Shown one piece after another: positions 8,949-17,482 of a stretch of DNA of 64,000 nucleotides. Every line of letters begins with the position of its first letter. Positions within the stretch are counted from its first letter, which is position 1. The translations under genes were made by a program, and so were the position numbers. Source of the stretch: Nitrospira sp. (GTDB lineage Bacteria; Nitrospirota; Nitrospiria; Nitrospirales; Nitrospiraceae). The notes below the pieces were generated by a model. The model did not search any database. It saw nothing but the letters and a program-made list of their open reading frames with translations, and was not told where the DNA came from. Where the stretch lies: the NCBI GenBank assembly GCA_024998565.1, contig JACOEM010000001.1, forward strand, positions 580,485-644,484. Direction: 5' to 3'.

Positions 8949-10250
8949 ATGACGCCTGGCCCCCAACTTCCCGATGCGACCCATACCACCCCGCTGACGC
9001 CTGAAACGGAGGCGCAGGTCGATCAATTCGCCCATACGGATATTTTGGTCGGTATTCCCAGCTTCAACAATGTCGAAACCATCGGGCATGTCGTCAAGGC
9101 GGTGAGCGCCGGCCTGGCCAAGTACTTTCCTGAAGCCCGCGCCGTCCTGGTGAATTCGGACGGCGGCTCGACCGACGGGACGCAGCAAGTGGTCTCGCAG
9201 GCCGTCGTCGATCTCAAGACCCTCTTCATCGGCGATCAGCAGAGCTCGCTCCACAAGATCATCACGCCGTATCACGGCATTCCGGGTAAAGGGAGCGCCT
9301 TTCGCACGATTTTTGAAATTGCGCGTCGCTTGAAAGCCAAGGCCTGTGCCGTCGTGGACTCGGATCTGCGGAGCATCACCCCGGAATGGATTGAGTTGCT
9401 GGTGAGTCCGGTATTCGAGCAGGGGTTCGACTACGTCGCGCCCTATTATCTGCGGCACAAGTATGACGGGACCATCACCAACAGCATTGTGTATCCGCTG
9501 ACACGAACCCTCTATGGGCATCGTATCAGACAGCCCATCGGCGGCGATTTCGGTTTTTCCGGCCAGTTGGCCCAGCACTATCTCGACAAGCATGTGTGGG
9601 AATCGGAAGTGGCCAAGTTCGGCATCGACATCTGGATGACGACGGAAGCGATCGCCAGCGGAGCGCGCGTCTGTCAAAGTTTTCTGGGTGCGAAGATCCA
9701 TAACCCCAAAGATCCGGCGGCGGACCTGTCGGCGATGCTGGTGCAGGTGCTCGGCGCCGTGTTCGCGTTGATGGAAGATCACTATGCGGTGTGGGGCAAG
9801 ACGGATGGCTCCAATGCGGTACCGCTGTTCGGGTTTCAATACGAGGTCGGGGTTGAGCCGGTCAACGTCAACGTCGATCGGATGATCAGCACCTTCCGGC
9901 AGGGCCTGAGCGATCTGGGGACGATTTGGGATCAGATTCTCGCCCCCGGTACCAGGCAGAGTCTGCGGCCGTTGGGAACCTGTTCAGCGCAAGACTTTCG
10001 GATTGCCGACAATCTGTGGGCGCGGGTCGTGTATGACGCCGCCGTGGCCTATCGCAATCGTGTGTTGCCGCGCGACCACGTCTTGAAGGCCTTCACTCCC
10101 TTGTACCTGGGGCGAACCGCTTCGTTTGTGTTGGATACCCAGGGGCTCACATCGAGCGAGGCCGAAGGCCGCATCGAAGCCTTGTGCCAAGCGTTTGAAA
10201 AGGATAAGTCTTATCTGGTGGCGCGCTGGAATGAGCCACATGCAGGATAA
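8949..10250 (+). CDS. GpgS-like glycosyltransferase (glucosyl/mannosyl-3-phosphoglycerate synthase type)
   Basis: 433 residues. GT-A fold transferase resembling the GT81 family: nucleotide-sugar start ILVGIPSFNNVETIGHVVKA, DGGSTDGT loop, the GIPGKGSAFRTI loop typical of glucosyl-3-phosphoglycerate synthases, and a DSD metal motif (residues 137-139). GpgS transfers a sugar from a nucleotide donor to 3-phosphoglycerate. The donor cannot be told from sequence. Context supports the assignment: an MPGP-family phosphatase, which would remove the phosphate, is encoded three genes on, with a channel-like membrane protein between. ATG 8949 is the first start after an in-frame stop; the GGAGG at 8927-8931 is rather far upstream. 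Confidence 0.75.
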   Translation: MTPGPQLPDATHTTPLTPETEAQVDQFAHTDILVGIPSFNNVETIGHVVKAVSAGLAKYFPEARAVLVNSDGGSTDGTQQVVSQAVVDLKTLFIGDQQSSLHKIITPYHGIPGKGSAFRTIFEIARRLKAKACAVVDSDLRSITPEWIELLVSPVFEQGFDYVAPYYLRHKYDGTITNSIVYPLTRTLYGHRIRQPIGGDFGFSGQLAQHYLDKHVWESEVAKFGIDIWMTTEAIASGARVCQSFLGAKIHNPKDPAADLSAMLVQVLGAVFALMEDHYAVWGKTDGSNAVPLFGFQYEVGVEPVNVNVDRMISTFRQGLSDLGTIWDQILAPGTRQSLRPLGTCSAQDFRIADNLWARVVYDAAVAYRNRVLPRDHVLKAFTPLYLGRTASFVLDTQGLTSSEAEGRIEALCQAFEKDKSYLVARWNEPHAG

Positions 10251-10307
10251 TGCGCGCGACTCGATCCATCTGAAGGCAGGCTGCAGTAGAGGCCGGAGGA
10301 GGGAAGT

Positions 10308-11015
10308 ATGAAAGAATTTTTTGAGAAGGGGCTACTCGATCCCCTGGAGTTGATGGCGCGGCAGGTCCTTGCGGTGCTGCCGAGCCTCTTGGCGATGTCG
10401 ATCATTTTCTTTGCGGGCCTGGTGGTCGCGTGGACCGCCAGTCAGGCGCTGGAGCGGTTGCTGCGGGTGGTTGGTCTGGATCGATTGTTCGATCGACTGG
10501 GAGTGACGGGCGCATTGTTGCGCGGCGGAGTGAAGACGGACCCGTCCCGGCTGGTAGGGCAGGCGGCCTATTGGCTGGTCATGATTTTCGCCACCGTCGC
10601 CGCCCTGGGCGCGCTCAATCTCCAGCCGATCAACGATTTTGCCAAGTCGTTCCTGGCGTATGTGCCGCATCTCGTGACGGCAGGTCTCATTCTCGTCGCC
10701 GGTTGGTTATTATCCAATTTTGTGTCCCAGGCGGTTCTGATTGCCGCGGTCAATGCGGGCCTGCCTCCGGCGCGACTGGTAGCGACCTGCTCGCGATGGG
10801 GGATTCAACTGTTGGCGGTCGCCATGGCGCTCGAGCAACTCGGGATCGCCCAGAATATCGTGGTGGTGGGATTCGGCATTACACTCGGTGGGCTCGTCAT
10901 GGCCGGGGCGATCGCATTCGGGCTAGGCGCCAAGGATCTGGCGAAAGACTATCTTGAGCGCGGGCTTTCGATTCGCACGCGGGATGGGGCGCCCGATGAT
11001 TTGCGCCATCTCTAA
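10308..11015 (+). CDS. MscS-like membrane protein with conserved TM-helix repeats
   Basis: 235 residues. An amphipathic N-terminus is followed by membrane segments at about residues 25-45, 85-105, 120-143, 165-185 and 185-205 with Gly/Ala-rich helices (VVGFGITLGGLVMAGAIAFGLGAKDLAKDYL). This end pattern is the conserved TM-helix module found in small-conductance mechanosensitive channels. The usual MscS beta domain is absent, so it is a short, pore-only type. It starts 57 bases after the glycosyltransferase stop, with GGAGG-rich sequence upstream. A role in solute release on hypo-osmotic shock is an inference from position. Confidence 0.72.
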   Translation: MKEFFEKGLLDPLELMARQVLAVLPSLLAMSIIFFAGLVVAWTASQALERLLRVVGLDRLFDRLGVTGALLRGGVKTDPSRLVGQAAYWLVMIFATVAALGALNLQPINDFAKSFLAYVPHLVTAGLILVAGWLLSNFVSQAVLIAAVNAGLPPARLVATCSRWGIQLLAVAMALEQLGIAQNIVVVGFGITLGGLVMAGAIAFGLGAKDLAKDYLERGLSIRTRDGAPDDLRHL

Positions 11016-11062
11016 GGCAACCGCTGTTTCGACCAATAACACATCGATGAGAAGGATCTGGC

Positions 11063-11290
11063 GTGACCGATAAAATTTCAGACGTTGATGCTGAGGCCAA
11101 GGCGCGTCGCTGGCTGGGCGGCGAAGCGGCCGTGCCCCGTTACCCCCACCGGCGTCAGAGCCCGTTCGTGTTCAACCGCTCGCTTGTGGGCCTTGTGGCG
11201 TTTGCGGTCGGACTAGGGTTTGCCGGTGGACTTCTGGCAGGTCTCCAGTGTCGGCGTCGTCCTCCTGTCTCTGCGAAGGAGTCACCATGA
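11063..11290 (+). CDS. Small single-helix membrane protein
   Basis: 75 residues from GTG 11063, with AGAAGGA about 8 bases upstream. The first 30 residues are polar and basic (AKARRWLGGEAAVPRYPHRRQ), then one hydrophobic segment (SLVGLVAFAVGLGFAGGLLAGL, roughly residues 40-61) and a basic tail (CRRRPP). No family recognised. It follows the channel-like gene by 47 bases on the same strand and could be an accessory subunit. Confidence 0.5.
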   Translation: MTDKISDVDAEAKARRWLGGEAAVPRYPHRRQSPFVFNRSLVGLVAFAVGLGFAGGLLAGLQCRRRPPVSAKESP

Positions 11291-11345
11291 ATCGACCATT
11301 GCAGCGTTGGTGCCGGGTGGTTCGTGAGTGCCGATCCGCTGATCG

Positions 11346-12182
11346 TCAAAGAGTCGGCAACAGATCCATGAGGCTTCGGTTCCATCCCACAGGCCCCACC
11401 CCTTCAGCGCGGGTGAGCTGGGGACACTGCACGTCCGGATCGTAGGAACCGTCCGGCTTCCGGACGAGAATGGGGTAGGTCACTGCTTCCAGCATGGGAA
11501 GGTCGTTCAGACTATCTCCAATGCCCACGGTGATCAGGGCGCGTCCCTCCTGCTGTGTGCGCCGCTCGTACCAGGCAATGAGTCGCCGGCTCGCAACCCC
11601 TTTATCGTTCTCTCCCATCAAATGATGGAACCGCCCCCCTCGGGTCCAGCGCAAGCCGCGGGTTGCCGCCGCTGCCGACAAGCGGCTCCAGACCATCCCA
11701 TTCGACTCCACCACAACCGGCTCATCGTATTCCCGTTGGGTGGCCAGTAGGGTCTCCGCAGGAGACAGCCCCGTGAGGGCTGACACCTCTTTGAGAGTGA
11801 GATCCCCGAACCCTCGCAAGTGACAGCCCAGATCCCGACCGATTTCTTTCAGCGCCGTCCTGAGCCGGACATAGGGGGTGCCGATTTCGACCACATCGTA
11901 GTCCCCGCGGGGTGCGGCCTGTCCCAAAGGAAATGGGAAATAGCCTTTGGGGATGAATAAGGCCCCGCCGTTTTCGACGATAAAGGGATGGTGATTGTCC
12001 AGGCGAAGTCGCAGTGGCTCCATTTCCGATCTGGTCTTGCTCGAAACCAGAATCAGGGACGCATCCAGGGCCCGAATAGCCGAGAGGGCCTCCCTGGCTG
12101 CCTCATAGGAATATGTGGTGGCGTCGAGGAGGGTTCCATCGAGGTCTGTAAGGATGAGGATGTGGGTCTTGGTCGATGGCAT
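11346..12182 (-). CDS. Mannosyl-3-phosphoglycerate phosphatase family HAD hydrolase
   Basis: 278 residues. HAD motif I is TDLDGTLL (nucleophile D13, D15), followed by the type IIB cap; motif II is in LILVSSKTRSEME; the VENGGALFIPKG segment and GENDKGVASRRL are typical of the MPGP/YedP subfamily; motif IV is GIGDSLNDLPML. These enzymes dephosphorylate mannosyl- or glucosyl-3-phosphoglycerate to the compatible solute. It is convergent with the GpgS-like operon, which supports a two-step pathway encoded within 3.3 kb. Confidence 0.82.
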   Translation of the reverse strand: MPSTKTHILILTDLDGTLLDATTYSYEAAREALSAIRALDASLILVSSKTRSEMEPLRLRLDNHHPFIVENGGALFIPKGYFPFPLGQAAPRGDYDVVEIGTPYVRLRTALKEIGRDLGCHLRGFGDLTLKEVSALTGLSPAETLLATQREYDEPVVVESNGMVWSRLSAAAATRGLRWTRGGRFHHLMGENDKGVASRRLIAWYERRTQQEGRALITVGIGDSLNDLPMLEAVTYPILVRKPDGSYDPDVQCPQLTRAEGVGPVGWNRSLMDLLPTL

Positions 12183-12583: not shown

Positions 12584-15500
12584 GTGCGATCTGATAAGAA
12601 ATCTCCTCTGAAGTCAGACAAAAAAGTCCTTCCGAAGGTCCAGAAAAAGGGGAGCATCGGCTTCAACAAGAAGTCGGCGCTGCTCGAAGATGCCATTACA
12701 CAAATGAACGCCGGCAAGTACGGCCGGGCGTCCTCCGCGTTAAAAGACCTGCTTGCGCTTGACCCGCTCAATGCGGAAGCCCGGCGCCTCTTCGCCACCC
12801 TCCATCTGCGGCTGGGCAGTCTCATGAGCGCCAGGACGGCGTTCGAATCGCTGGCTCGGGAAGCGATGGAGCGGCAGGACTACTGGTTGGCGGAGTCGCT
12901 CCTGCGGGAATATCTGACGGCGGGACCCCGCTATGTTCCGTTCCTGGAGATGCTCGGCCGTGTCTATGAGGAAAAGGGCGACGTGATGGCGGCGGTGGCT
13001 GAGTACGGCAAGGCGGTGGAGGTGTTGCTGGAGGATCCGGACACCGACCATCCGAACCGGGCCAGCGATCTCTTTGCCCGTATTCGTTCCCTGGCCCCGG
13101 GAAGTCCGGTGGCCTTTCGTTTCGCGGCCATGTTCGACACGGTTACGGGGCAGGTCCTGCAGGCTTCTCAGCCGTCCACGGTCGAGACGCTCAACGAGAC
13201 CACTCAAGCTTCGGCACTCACCGAGACTCCCCCTGATACAGACTCTGCGGTGGTCATGCCTTGGGAGCAGGTGGAGACGGCCTCCAGTGATGTCCCATGT
13301 CAACAGGAGATCCAGAGCTCGGCGGTCGAGCAGTCCCCTGAGGGGATCGCTGCAGCCACCTCCTCTTCGACCCTGGAGGCGGTGATGGAAGGTCTGCCGC
13401 AGGGTAGGCCAGAGGAGTCACTGTCGGTCACGCCGCCGGTCGATGGGCCACAGGAGTCGGAGGTTCCACTTCAATCTGAGTCCTCCGTTTCAGCCGTCAT
13501 CCCGGCGGTGGAGCCGGTGCAGGTTGCCGCTGAAAGTGATCTTCCTGTCAGAGATGTCGCGCCTGCTTCGACAGAGCCGGCCGAAATAGTGTCTGCACCG
13601 GTTGCTGAGGTGTCCCTTCCCACGATTGACGCCTCGGCGAAAACCGGTCCGGACTCGATCCCCACACCGTTGGCATCTTCTGCGCCGGTGCCCTGGGATC
13701 AGGTAGAAGAGGCCGCTGAGATCATTCCTCCGCAGCCTGAAGGAACGGCGGCGTCGCCGACGGACATTGCTCCTAGCCCTTCGGGAGAGACGACCCCCAC
13801 ACCATCAGTGGTCGAGTCGGCAGTCCCCACGATCGAGGTTCTCACGCAGTCCAGTGCGCACCCGATTGCCACCGCACCGGCGAGCCCCGCGCCGATGCCT
13901 TGGGACCAGATCGAAGAGGTTGCGGTCGTAATCCCCTCGCCGCCGCCGAGTCCGGAACCGTTCATGGTTGACCCCGAGTCATTGCCGCCCACGCAGAGCG
14001 AAGTGTCAACGCTGCCGTTGGACGGGGTGGCTCCAGTCCAACCTGTCGAACCTGGACCGCCGGCTGCTGCCGCTTCGATGCCGTCCGAAGAGATGGACCT
14101 CTGTACACCAGAGTCTGAGCCCATCACGCCGACGATCGAAGTGCTCACCCAGGCCAGTATCCACCCAATTGCCCAAGCGCCGACAAGTCCTGCGCCGATG
14201 CCCTGGGATCAGATCGAAGAAGCAACGGGTGCTGTGGAGGCGCGTACTAAGCCCCTGGTGGAGCCTGGAACAGATGAGGTTGAGCACACGATCGAGTCAC
14301 CTGTTACCAACCAGGCGGGCGAGGGCAGTCGGGCCGCGGAGCCGGTTCCCTCGTCGCGTCCTTCGGAACTCACCTCATCGGGACTCTCATGGGAGGAAAT
14401 TCTTGCGGCCGTGGCGGCCATGCAAGCGTCTCCTGCGCCCGCTCAGACGCCTTCGGCTGGTGAGCAACAGCCTGCTTCCGGTGCGGCGGCACAGGAGCGG
14501 ACGGACGGCGCGCTCACGGCTCCACCGGCTCCCGCAGAGGAAGAGTCCCCCTTGTTCGAGGCGACGGTACCGGACATCTCGGCTGATCAGCCCGCGGCAA
14601 CTCCATCCCTATCGGCACCCATGCCATGGGAACAGATTGAAGCGGACGATGTCACGATTCCGCGCCAGGAGCCTGAGCCGGAGTTTGGTTCGGCCTCTGC
14701 CGAGGATGCCGTGGTAGTGCAGGACGCCACGGTGGCCTTGCCTGTCGTGTCCGACGCGACTGAGGCACCGTTTGTCGGAGAGGCTTGTTCGGTTGAAGCC
14801 GTTGCTGATCGTCCTGTGGAGCCTGCCGCCACAGAGATTTCGGAGTTGCGGATTCTCTCCCCGGATGCTCCGATTGCGGTGCCTGAGGAATCTATTTGTA
14901 TTCCAGTCGAGACTTCCAAGGCGGTCGAGGGACCGATTCCGGACGCCGTGCCTGAAGCTGAGCAACCGGCCGAATCCACGATCGATCGAGCGGAGGAGCC
15001 TCCGTTGCGCCTGGCCGACAGTGAGTCGGTTATCGCCACGGTGCCGGAGGAACCGTCACCTGTTCCGGTCGAACCGGTGACGGAGTTTGCTATTGCCGTG
15101 AGCACTGACGTCCCGCCGACGGAACCGGAGTTGGTCATCGTCGAAGAGCCTCAGGCACCGGTCGGCGAGGCGAGTGCGGAACTGCCTTCGGAACCAGTCC
15201 TGCCGGTGGAGCGGCCCGCGGAGAGTCTTGGCTTACAGCATGTCATGGTCGAGCCAGCGCCGGAGGCGGTTGCCGAGGACCTCGTTCCTGCTGCCGCGTC
15301 GTCGCTAGTCGACGGGCAGCCGGTTGCGGGAGTGGAGCCGGTTGCACCCGATGCTCCCTTGCCGGCGGTTGTTCCGGAGGTGACACCTCAATCAGAGCCG
15401 GAGATGGTGGTGACCGAGCAGGAGCCATCTTCTCAATTGGCGTTGGAGGTTCGTGACGTTGACACGGTTTCCATAAGCGTACCCACTGAGCCCCCGGTGG

Positions 15501-17482
15501 AGGCATCGCGTACCTCGGTCGCGTCGGCTCCTGAGACAGTCTCACTGACACCTGTTCCTCAGCCGATTGTTGGAGAAGCGGAAGAAGCTGTTTTGCCTCC
15601 GGTCGAACTAACGCAAGAGTCGGTCGTCGCTCCATCACCAGAACTTGTGGAGGCTCCTGCGGAGTCTGTGGCTTCTTCGGATGAGCAGGCGCCGACTCCA
15701 ACGGCTCAGGCCGATTCTCCGACCGACACAGGTGAGGGGCTGCGGATTCTGTGGGATGACTCCTTGTCTAAGCCGATTCCGAGCGCCTCAACCGGAAACA
15801 TGCTGACGCGCTGGCTCAAGAAGCCTGCAGAGCCTGTGCCGAATAAAGTTGCTGAGGCTAATCCCCCTGCGACCGTTCCCGATGAAGCACCGACTCCTGT
15901 TCCTGCTGTGTCTGTCGAGCAACAGGAGCCCGCCGTCGTTACGGTGGAGCGCCTGCCCGACGAACAGGAAGCTGTGGCGCCTATGCACGTGTACGAGCCC
16001 GTCGCTCGACCCAAGCCGAGTCAGCCTGCCGGAGCCGGCACGTGGACTCGAATGGGCGAGCTGGTGGCCTCACTGGTTGGAGCCGGAGTCTCGACGACCC
16101 AGTCCTTAGTCGTCATGGCTCTTGCGCTGGTCGGACTCACGCTTGTACTGATCGGCGGAGTGGTCGGGGCGGTCGCTCTGACGTGGCTCGTTCTGGAGGA
16201 GCAGCCCAGTGCGGCCTATCGCACGATGACGTCGGTGCCGCAACATACATTGCAGGATTCCAGCAAGAACGGATACGTCCTGCTCCTTGGATTCGGCGTT
16301 GCGGCGTCCCAGGATCCAGTACAGGCCGGGATAGACCGGCGTGTGGAAGGGGCCGATCATGCCTATGCCCACACCTGCTTGACCGGTGAGGGAGCATTGT
16401 CCGGCGCGGATCAGGGGGCTTCTGCGGAGTCGGTGGGTAAGTGGATGAAGACTGCCGATCCGGCGGCGCAGATGCGCGCGGAGGCGACGGATGTGAAGGG
16501 ATGGGCATCCCGGGCCGAGGTCAGTCTGGGACGATACCGGCAGTGGCTGACAAAGCCCTTTGAAGATTGGGGATATGGACAATCAATGACCCCGAACTGC
16601 GGCCTCATTCTCTATGCTCATCAACTCTATATTGCCGAGGGGTTTGCGCAGGATGTTGAGGCCGGGGTTGCACGGCTTGAGACGGATTTGACGGCCTGGC
16701 GTACGGTCTTGGGGCAGGCCAGAACATTGCCGGTGAAAATGCTGGCCAGTGCCGCGATGAATGATGACGTCAGGGTCATGAGCGGACTCTTGCTCCGGCC
16801 TGAGCTTGACGACCGATTCGTCAGCCGATTGGCTAAACTCGCCCGGCCGCTTGAGCAGGCAGAGCAGTCGGTCCGATGGCCGATGCAGAGTCAGTTCGTG
16901 CTGGCCACCAAGACGCTGAACCAGGCGATGAACGAGGACCGGTCCGATGCTCGGCCGTTCTATGGCTCCATCGCGGCGGCGTTACCGCTCCCGAAGCAGC
17001 GCCGGTTCAATGCCTATGCGCAATATTATGAGGCCGCGGGCAAGGCTGCGGCAGAGGGGCGGTACATTGATTTGCCGAAACAGTCTCAGTTTGTGCACGC
17101 GCCTCCGTATGGGATCGGGGACATGGTGATGAATCCCATTGAAAGCCTCGTCGGGGTGGATACCCTTCCGACATGGGAGACCTATGCAGGTCGAGTGCTG
17201 GAAACGGATGCGCGCTTACGGCTGGCTTCCCTGCAGGCCTGGTTGCGCCGGACGCCACCGGAGCAAGACCTGCTCACCAGAATTGCCAAGGCGGGGCAAG
17301 GCGTGTACGACCCCTTCACCGGGTTCCCCATGCTGGTGAACATGAAGAAGGGTGTTCTCTATAGTGTCGGCCAGGACTTGAAGGACAATGAAGCACAGGA
17401 CCGGTTCGACCTGGTGGCGCCGATTCCCTCGGTCGCATGGGCCGGTGGAAAGCGGCCTGCAGACGCGGATAAATCCAAGTAA
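12584..17482 (+). CDS. Giant TPR / disordered / single-helix membrane protein with repeated PW(D/E)Q(I/V)E motif
   Basis: 1632 residues from GTG 12584. Four parts: (1) residues 1-35 lysine-rich; (2) about 35-200 helical TPR-like repeats (MNAGKYGRASSALKDLLALDP, then AESLLREYLTAGPRYVP); (3) about 205-1150 very long, low-complexity, acidic, rich in Pro, Glu, Val, Ala and Ser, surely disordered; (4) a transmembrane helix at about 1176-1204, then about 430 folded-looking residues. Within the disordered part a short motif recurs: MPWEQVE (225), VPWDQVEE (369), MPWDQIEE (438), MPWDQIEE (539), MPWEQIE (680), with weaker LSWEEI (603) and ILWDD (1057). Copies 438 and 539 sit in a longer duplicated block. 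No known family for the C-terminus. The motif looks like a docking site; the partner is unknown. Confidence 0.85.
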   Translation: MRSDKKSPLKSDKKVLPKVQKKGSIGFNKKSALLEDAITQMNAGKYGRASSALKDLLALDPLNAEARRLFATLHLRLGSLMSARTAFESLAREAMERQDYWLAESLLREYLTAGPRYVPFLEMLGRVYEEKGDVMAAVAEYGKAVEVLLEDPDTDHPNRASDLFARIRSLAPGSPVAFRFAAMFDTVTGQVLQASQPSTVETLNETTQASALTETPPDTDSAVVMPWEQVETASSDVPCQQEIQSSAVEQSPEGIAAATSSSTLEAVMEGLPQGRPEESLSVTPPVDGPQESEVPLQSESSVSAVIPAVEPVQVAAESDLPVRDVAPASTEPAEIVSAPVAEVSLPTIDASAKTGPDSIPTPLASSAPVPWDQVEEAAEIIPPQPEGTAASPTDIAPSPSGETTPTPSVVESAVPTIEVLTQSSAHPIATAPASPAPMPWDQIEEVAVVIPSPPPSPEPFMVDPESLPPTQSEVSTLPLDGVAPVQPVEPGPPAAAASMPSEEMDLCTPESEPITPTIEVLTQASIHPIAQAPTSPAPMPWDQIEEATGAVEARTKPLVEPGTDEVEHTIESPVTNQAGEGSRAAEPVPSSRPSELTSSGLSWEEILAAVAAMQASPAPAQTPSAGEQQPASGAAAQERTDGALTAPPAPAEEESPLFEATVPDISADQPAATPSLSAPMPWEQIEADDVTIPRQEPEPEFGSASAEDAVVVQDATVALPVVSDATEAPFVGEACSVEAVADRPVEPAATEISELRILSPDAPIAVPEESICIPVETSKAVEGPIPDAVPEAEQPAESTIDRAEEPPLRLADSESVIATVPEEPSPVPVEPVTEFAIAVSTDVPPTEPELVIVEEPQAPVGEASAELPSEPVLPVERPAESLGLQHVMVEPAPEAVAEDLVPAAASSLVDGQPVAGVEPVAPDAPLPAVVPEVTPQSEPEMVVTEQEPSSQLALEVRDVDTVSISVPTEPPVEASRTSVASAPETVSLTPVPQPIVGEAEEAVLPPVELTQESVVAPSPELVEAPAESVASSDEQAPTPTAQADSPTDTGEGLRILWDDSLSKPIPSASTGNMLTRWLKKPAEPVPNKVAEANPPATVPDEAPTPVPAVSVEQQEPAVVTVERLPDEQEAVAPMHVYEPVARPKPSQPAGAGTWTRMGELVASLVGAGVSTTQSLVVMALALVGLTLVLIGGVVGAVALTWLVLEEQPSAAYRTMTSVPQHTLQDSSKNGYVLLLGFGVAASQDPVQAGIDRRVEGADHAYAHTCLTGEGALSGADQGASAESVGKWMKTADPAAQMRAEATDVKGWASRAEVSLGRYRQWLTKPFEDWGYGQSMTPNCGLILYAHQLYIAEGFAQDVEAGVARLETDLTAWRTVLGQARTLPVKMLASAAMNDDVRVMSGLLLRPELDDRFVSRLAKLARPLEQAEQSVRWPMQSQFVLATKTLNQAMNEDRSDARPFYGSIAAALPLPKQRRFNAYAQYYEAAGKAAAEGRYIDLPKQSQFVHAPPYGIGDMVMNPIESLVGVDTLPTWETYAGRVLETDARLRLASLQAWLRRTPPEQDLLTRIAKAGQGVYDPFTGFPMLVNMKKGVLYSVGQDLKDNEAQDRFDLVAPIPSVAWAGGKRPADADKSK

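What the first reader, a model, noticed from the sequence alone, without database searches (positions are those of the whole stretch)
12584..17482. Giant protein with a recurring PW(D/E)Q(I/V)E motif in a ~950-residue disordered belt
The sequence shows at least five near-identical copies of (M/V)PW(D/E)Q(I/V)E at residues 225, 369, 438, 539 and 680, with weaker W-acid copies near 603 and 1057, spread through a long Pro/Glu-rich segment. It is framed by TPR-like repeats at one end and a transmembrane helix plus about 430 unassigned residues at the other. Short linear motifs held in disorder while the rest drifts are the mark of a multivalent docking platform. That the protein tethers many copies of a partner at the membrane is inference; I know no named system of this type.
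Basis: partly seen in the sequence, partly recalled or inferred. Interest (0 to 1): 0.7.

Follow-up and report, generated by a model that had tools for sequence, protein, structure and literature searches.

The report
Nitrospira membrane scaffold with repeated docking motif
Nitrite-oxidising Nitrospira and their relatives make a very long membrane protein whose floppy cytoplasmic arm carries several copies of one short tryptophan motif that evolution keeps nearly unchanged while the surrounding arm drifts, so it looks like a real, still unnamed docking scaffold whose partner is unknown.

Summary
ORF 12584-17482 (1632 aa) has PW[DE]Q[IV]E five times, at residues 225, 369, 438, 539 and 680, where shuffled composition gives 0.00025. 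In the whole genome an equivalent DNA pattern occurs only in this gene.
Orthologues occur throughout the genus and in most related Nitrospiraceae genera. Motif codons change almost only synonymously (anchor copy omega 0.017; linkers 0.49; TPR 0.031). The consensus is [AS]-P-M-P-W-[DE]-Q-[VI]-E-x5-I-P. Copy number varies; some related lineages have one copy or none. Tandem duplication of a ~70-residue unit is seen directly in one relative. It explains the shared flanks of the middle copies, not the outer copies.
Anatomy: cytoplasmic TPR domain, ~975-residue Pro/Glu-rich arm with several conserved tryptophan motifs, one TM helix, and a ~420-residue periplasmic helical domain. That last domain was found only in Nitrospirota and has no Pfam or PDB relative.
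Best reading: a membrane-anchored multivalent scaffold, analogous in logic to FimV/HubP polar hubs but in reversed order and not homologous. In related genera the gene often lies beside gspD, hinting at secretion or pilus machinery. The partner is unknown.

The parts
12584..17482 (+). Whole gene: TPR - disordered motif arm - TM - periplasmic domain protein, 1632 aa
   Evidence: ORF; orthologues over the whole length
12656..13153 (+). N-terminal TPR domain, residues about 25-190, cytoplasmic
   Evidence: Pfam TPR_16/TPR_19; AF2 pLDDT about 95; omega 0.031
13169..16093 (+). Disordered Pro/Glu/Ala/Val-rich arm, residues about 196-1170 (16% P, 12.7% E)
   Evidence: composition; AF2 pLDDT mostly 33-45 in the part folded; omega of linkers 0.49
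13256..13279 (+). Motif copy 1 MPWEQVET (res 225-232)
   Evidence: aligned in orthologues
13688..13711 (+). Motif copy 2 VPWDQVEE (res 369-376)
13895..13918 (+). Motif copy 3 MPWDQIEE (res 438-445)
14198..14221 (+). Motif copy 4 MPWDQIEE (res 539-546)
14372..14425 (+). Second class of linear motif, TSSGLSWEEILAAVAAMQ (res 597-614), predicted short helix
   Evidence: conserved, omega 0.068, AF2 helix 603-614 with pLDDT about 84
14621..14644 (+). Motif copy 5, anchor copy MPWEQIEA (res 680-687)
   Evidence: most conserved 9-mer of the arm, 1.00 identity; 676-687 omega 0.017
15737..15826 (+). Third conserved patch, GLRILWDDS...STGNMLTRWLKKP (res 1052-1081)
16127..16204 (+). Single transmembrane helix (res about 1182-1207), N-in/C-out by charge bias (inference)
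   Evidence: direct reading of the sequence; acidic EE on the C-terminal side, basic residues before it
16214..17479 (+). Periplasmic C-terminal helical domain (res 1211-1632) with Cys1265/Cys1339
   Evidence: AF2 pLDDT 85, pTM 0.86; no Pfam/NCBIfam/PDB relative; a Cys pair at or next to these positions in the fused copies and absent at those positions in the standalone copies

Best explanation
The gene encodes a Nitrospiraceae-specific, membrane-anchored multivalent scaffold. The C-terminal domain anchors the protein on the periplasmic side and a single helix crosses the inner membrane. A ~975-residue flexible arm runs into the cytoplasm and ends in a TPR domain. The arm presents several copies of a short linear motif, [AS]PMPW[DE]Q[VI]E-x5-IP, plus other tryptophan motifs, as independent docking sites for one or more cytoplasmic partners; the TPR head is a further binding module. 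Shown: the anatomy, the number of motifs and their strong purifying selection, and drifting linkers. Inferred: orientation in the membrane, that the motifs bind a partner, and that avidity sets copy number. Weakly supported: that the clients belong to envelope type II secretion or type IV pilus machinery, organised much as FimV/HubP organise a pole.
For: Motif count against shuffles and near-uniqueness to this gene. At motif columns pN is 0.077 with pS 0.80, and the anchor has omega 0.017, against 0.49 for linkers. The motif is kept in other genera, including N. moscoviensis. Within the AF2 model of residues 1-700, islands of pLDDT above 50 fall at motif copies 2-5 and at the 597-614 helix, amid linkers mostly at 33-45, as expected for segments that fold on binding. 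A Cys pair (1265, 1339) is kept in the fused copies and not at those positions in the standalone copies, consistent with a periplasmic disulfide. Tandem duplication of a motif-bearing 213-bp unit in L122 shows a way to change copy number. A classical gspD secretin gene lies close by, usually divergent and adjacent, in more than 20 loci of related genera, among them G029 and G033.
Against: No partner has been identified. Some relatives keep one motif or none: G029 (L057) shows none, and L118, L125 and L128 show none, so multivalency is not essential to the whole family. The window's own genome has no classical gspD among its two secretins, only PilQ and a different secretin. G024 has three secretins but no detected orthologue, so the secretion link is not strict. 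AF2 does not place the motifs confidently on the TPR domain.
Confidence: 0.6

Rival explanations
1. The motifs are intramolecular: they dock on the protein's own TPR domain (or a neighbour's), giving a self-assembling condensate or an autoinhibited coil rather than binding a separate client.
For: The TPR domain is almost invariant (omega 0.031) and accompanies the motif in the full-length orthologues examined. No other gene in the genome bears the motif.
Against: AF2 of residues 1-700 keeps the motifs below confident pLDDT. The TPR domain stays conserved in G029 (71% identity), which shows no motif.
Confidence: 0.2
2. It is a dedicated organiser of a type II secretion or type IV pilus machine: the periplasmic domain contacts the secretin or inner-membrane platform and the arm collects cytoplasmic factors.
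For: gspD close by on the opposite strand in more than 20 loci of related genera, with the N0 and secretin domains of GspD. A PilZ gene and GGDEF and HDOD genes lie around it in the window's genus. The reduced genome G034 lacks secretin, T2SSE and this gene together.
Against: The window's genome lacks a classical gspD, and the neighbourhood between pyrF and the target differs between clades. G024 has secretins and T2SSE but no detected target, although a close gpgS orthologue is also missing there, so loss of the region or an assembly gap is possible.
Confidence: 0.25
3. The repeats are only remnants of tandem duplication in a low-complexity linker, with no function of their own.
For: Copies 3 and 4 share 67% of the preceding 30 residues. 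L122 carries a fresh 213-bp x 2.9 tandem array.
Against: Copies 1 and 5 share little or no flank with the rest. Motif codons are full of synonymous changes but keep their residues, and the motif persists in other genera.
Confidence: 0.05

Closest known systems
FimV / HubP polar organiser proteins (gammaproteobacteria)
   Same: One TM helix, a periplasmic anchor domain, a long unstructured acidic cytoplasmic region of variable length and repeat number, and a TPR module at the far cytoplasmic end (features from PMC12918733)
   Different: Reversed order along the chain (TPR first, periplasmic domain last). No LysM hit in Pfam, no FimV hit in NCBIfam. The repeat is a sharp tryptophan motif, not an acidic repeat. 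No homology detected.
Standalone ~490-aa TM + C-domain proteins of Nitrospirota (L060, L061, L062)
   Same: Homologous C-terminal domain, 31-36% identity
   Different: No TPR and no motif arm; lack the two conserved Cys; in these three genomes encoded beside btuF-btuC-btuD-like genes
TPR paralogue in the same genome (L063 10331-12250, 639 aa)
   Same: About 40% identity over the TPR domain
   Different: No TM segment seen, no PWDQ motif, no C-terminal domain; lies near lptF/lptG-like genes
Repeat linker proteins such as EPYC1 (recalled, not tested)
   Same: Short tryptophan-containing binding motif repeated about every 60-70 residues in a disordered chain
   Different: Soluble, eukaryotic, Rubisco-binding; analogy of logic only

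Membership tests
FimV/HubP | Periplasmic LysM-like domain | tested here: not met
   No LysM hit in the Pfam scans at E up to 1; the periplasmic part is modelled as helical with a small sheet
FimV/HubP | FimV core/C-terminal family models | tested here: not met
   NCBIfam scan at E up to 1 lists no FimV model for this protein; the genome-level search with TIGR03505 had no positive control and says nothing
FimV/HubP | Order SP-LysM-TM-acidic region-TPR | tested here: not met
   Order here is TPR-arm-TM-periplasmic domain
FimV/HubP | Long, variable, acidic unstructured cytoplasmic region with TPR module | tested here: met
   975-residue arm with D+E 17% and K+R 2.7%; low AF2 confidence to residue 700; cytoplasmic side is inferred
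FimV/HubP | Polar localisation, peptidoglycan binding | not testable with these tools
   needs microscopy and sacculus binding
TPR proteins | Tandem TPR helix pairs above curated cut-off | tested here: met
   TPR_16 36 bits against cut-off 32.7; TPR_19 28.6 against 25
Type II secretion component | Known Gsp/Pil family domain | tested here: not met
   No T2SS or pilus domain above cut-off in Pfam or NCBIfam scans
Type II secretion component | Genetic linkage to T2SS genes | tested here: inconclusive
   gspD close by in related genera, not in the window's genus
Short linear motif (SLiM) scaffold | Motif conserved in fast-evolving disordered linkers | tested here: met
Short linear motif (SLiM) scaffold | Physical binding of motif to a partner domain | not testable with these tools
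   co-folding with candidates was not available; no partner known

The most novel reading that the evidence does not exclude
A lineage-specific bacterial docking code: the PMPW[DE]Q[VI]E motif is read by an unidentified cytoplasmic protein, and the scaffold is an independently evolved, order-reversed counterpart of FimV/HubP that organises envelope machines (T2SS or pili) in Nitrospira.
Probability: 0.25. Interest if true: 0.75.

Novelty: new variant of a known kind. Interest (0 to 1): 0.55.

Why it matters
Multivalent linear-motif scaffolds are well documented in eukaryotes and less often in bacteria. Here a bacterial one can be read from codon statistics across related genera of a globally important nitrifier, and it makes a direct prediction: one domain in the Nitrospira proteome should bind PMPWDQVE. 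Finding it would name the function of a conserved 1200-1640-residue protein, and of a periplasmic domain family with no known relatives.

Tried and rejected
Motif as remnant of duplication only: rejected by codon data. Motif carried by other proteins that could reveal the system: none in the own genome and three isolated hits, not examined, among 14 genomes. Known domain in the C-terminal 420 residues: none in Pfam, NCBIfam or PDB sequences. Foldseek gave no E at or below 0.001, and VIA best Z was 7.0 to designed helical proteins, which is background for helical models. The conserved DPFTGxPM...YSVGxD ending recalls the end of GspG-type pseudopilins, but no Pfam hit supports it, so it was dropped. 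Anti-phage defence: no PADLOC hit. Literature on Nitrospira TPR/disordered scaffolds: nothing found in the library.

Full report
Check of the observation. The ORF 12584-17482 encodes 1632 residues. PW[DE]Q[IV]E is present at the five places named, and the tryptophan-acid variants at 603 and 1057 are there too. Twenty thousand composition shuffles of the 975-residue arm give a mean of 0.00025 motifs and never two or more. The DNA pattern for the motif hits this genome five times, all in this gene, with no control hit. In 14 related genomes the same kind of pattern finds the orthologue in 13, plus three isolated hits elsewhere.

Where it comes from. The window lies in a Nitrospira genome close to N. 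defluvii; the orthologue from FP929003 (L078) has 94% identity in the C-terminal domain. Orthologues were found in nearly all members of the genus and in most other genera of the family sampled, and not in the sampled genomes of other families of the order, apart from one marginal hit to the TPR part. The C-terminal domain was found only in records of Nitrospirota.

Conservation. Within the genus the TPR blocks are 83-99% conserved, the C-terminal domain 71-93% and the arm mostly 26-64%. The most conserved nine-residue window of the arm is LSAPMPWEQ (1.00). Pairwise codon counts over 15 genus sequences give pS 0.80 and pN 0.077 in four motif copies, omega 0.017 for the anchor copy, 0.031 for the TPR, 0.116 for the C-terminal domain and 0.49 for linkers. 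Over 68 occurrences of PW[DE], the residue before is M in 66, the residue after is Q in 67, the next is V or I in 59 and then E in 59. Position +11 (counting the motif P as 0) is mostly I and +12 mostly P; PW[DE] itself was the search key, so its invariance is by construction. In other genera the motif persists: N. moscoviensis (L129) has two copies and many others one to three. Some have none, for example G029, L118, L125 and L128. The arm also carries other conserved tryptophan patches: TSSGLSWEEILAAVAAMQ and ILWDDS...LTRWLKKP in the window's genus; FSWNTVFDGAWKF, HWSTGEV, NWDKEKG and RPEWVRASE in the sister genera.

Origin of the copies. Copies 3 and 4 share 67% of the 30 residues before the motif, while copies 1 and 5 share little or no flank with the others. 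L122 carries a 213-bp unit repeated 2.9 times with 93% match, bearing three motif copies 71 residues apart; no such array remains in the window. Copies therefore arise by tandem duplication, after which linkers drift and motifs stay (inference from these cases).

Structure. AF2 with 51 sequences models the C-terminal 422 residues confidently (pLDDT 85, pTM 0.86) as helices with a small sheet near the end. Neither Foldseek nor VIA-align gives a convincing relative; this does not prove a new fold. AF2 of residues 1-700 gives a confident TPR domain. The linkers sit mostly at pLDDT 33-45, with rises at motif copies 2-5 and a helix at 603-614. No confident docking of the motifs on the TPR is indicated. 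Two cysteines, 1265 and 1339, have counterparts in the TPR-fused C-terminal domains of the alignment and at neither position in the standalone copies. This fits a disulfide on the periplasmic side (inference).

Neighbourhood. In the window's genus the gene lies between gpgS-mscS-mpgP-like genes and a sigma factor gene, with a DUF3106 gene, GGDEF, HDOD, AIM24 and M48 genes beyond. AIM24 and M48 remain downstream in most genera. In sister genera a classical gspD (N0, Secretin_N and Secretin domains) lies close upstream on the opposite strand in more than 20 loci. In the window's genus that interval holds other genes, including a PilZ gene, and the own genome keeps only PilQ and a secretin with TPR-like N-terminal repeats. 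The link with secretion or pili is thus suggestive, not established.

Mechanism. The most economical reading is a membrane-anchored arm with repeated docking sites and a TPR head. The architecture is that of FimV/HubP read backwards (PMC12918733). Membership in that family fails on order, LysM and family models; working like it remains possible. The partner is the missing piece.

Noticed in passing
L060 6075-7544 (-); L061 6295-7845; L062 6511-7983: Standalone TM + C-domain proteins lie next to btuF-btuC-btuD-like (B12 uptake) genes in three other Nitrospirota genera; function of the pairing unknown.
   Followed up: partly
L160 8702-11095: In the window's genome a secretin with TPR-like N-terminal repeats and a possible cohesin-like C-terminal region heads a T2SS/T4P-like cluster (pseudopilin, LysM, GspF, GspE, PilM/N/O-like), read by eye.
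   Followed up: no
L122 4198-4808: Fresh 213-bp x 2.9 tandem array carrying PMPWDEVQ motif copies: copy-number change caught in progress.
   Followed up: yes
L095-L134 (sister genera), disordered arm: Several further conserved tryptophan patches (FSWNxxFDGAWKF, HWSTGEV, NWDKEKG, RPEWVRASE) specific to the sister clade.
   Followed up: partly
window 8949-12182: gpgS-like glycosyltransferase, MscS-like channel and HAD phosphatase genes beside the target look like a compatible-solute (glucosyl/mannosylglycerate) and osmotic set; the link to the target is unknown.
   Followed up: no
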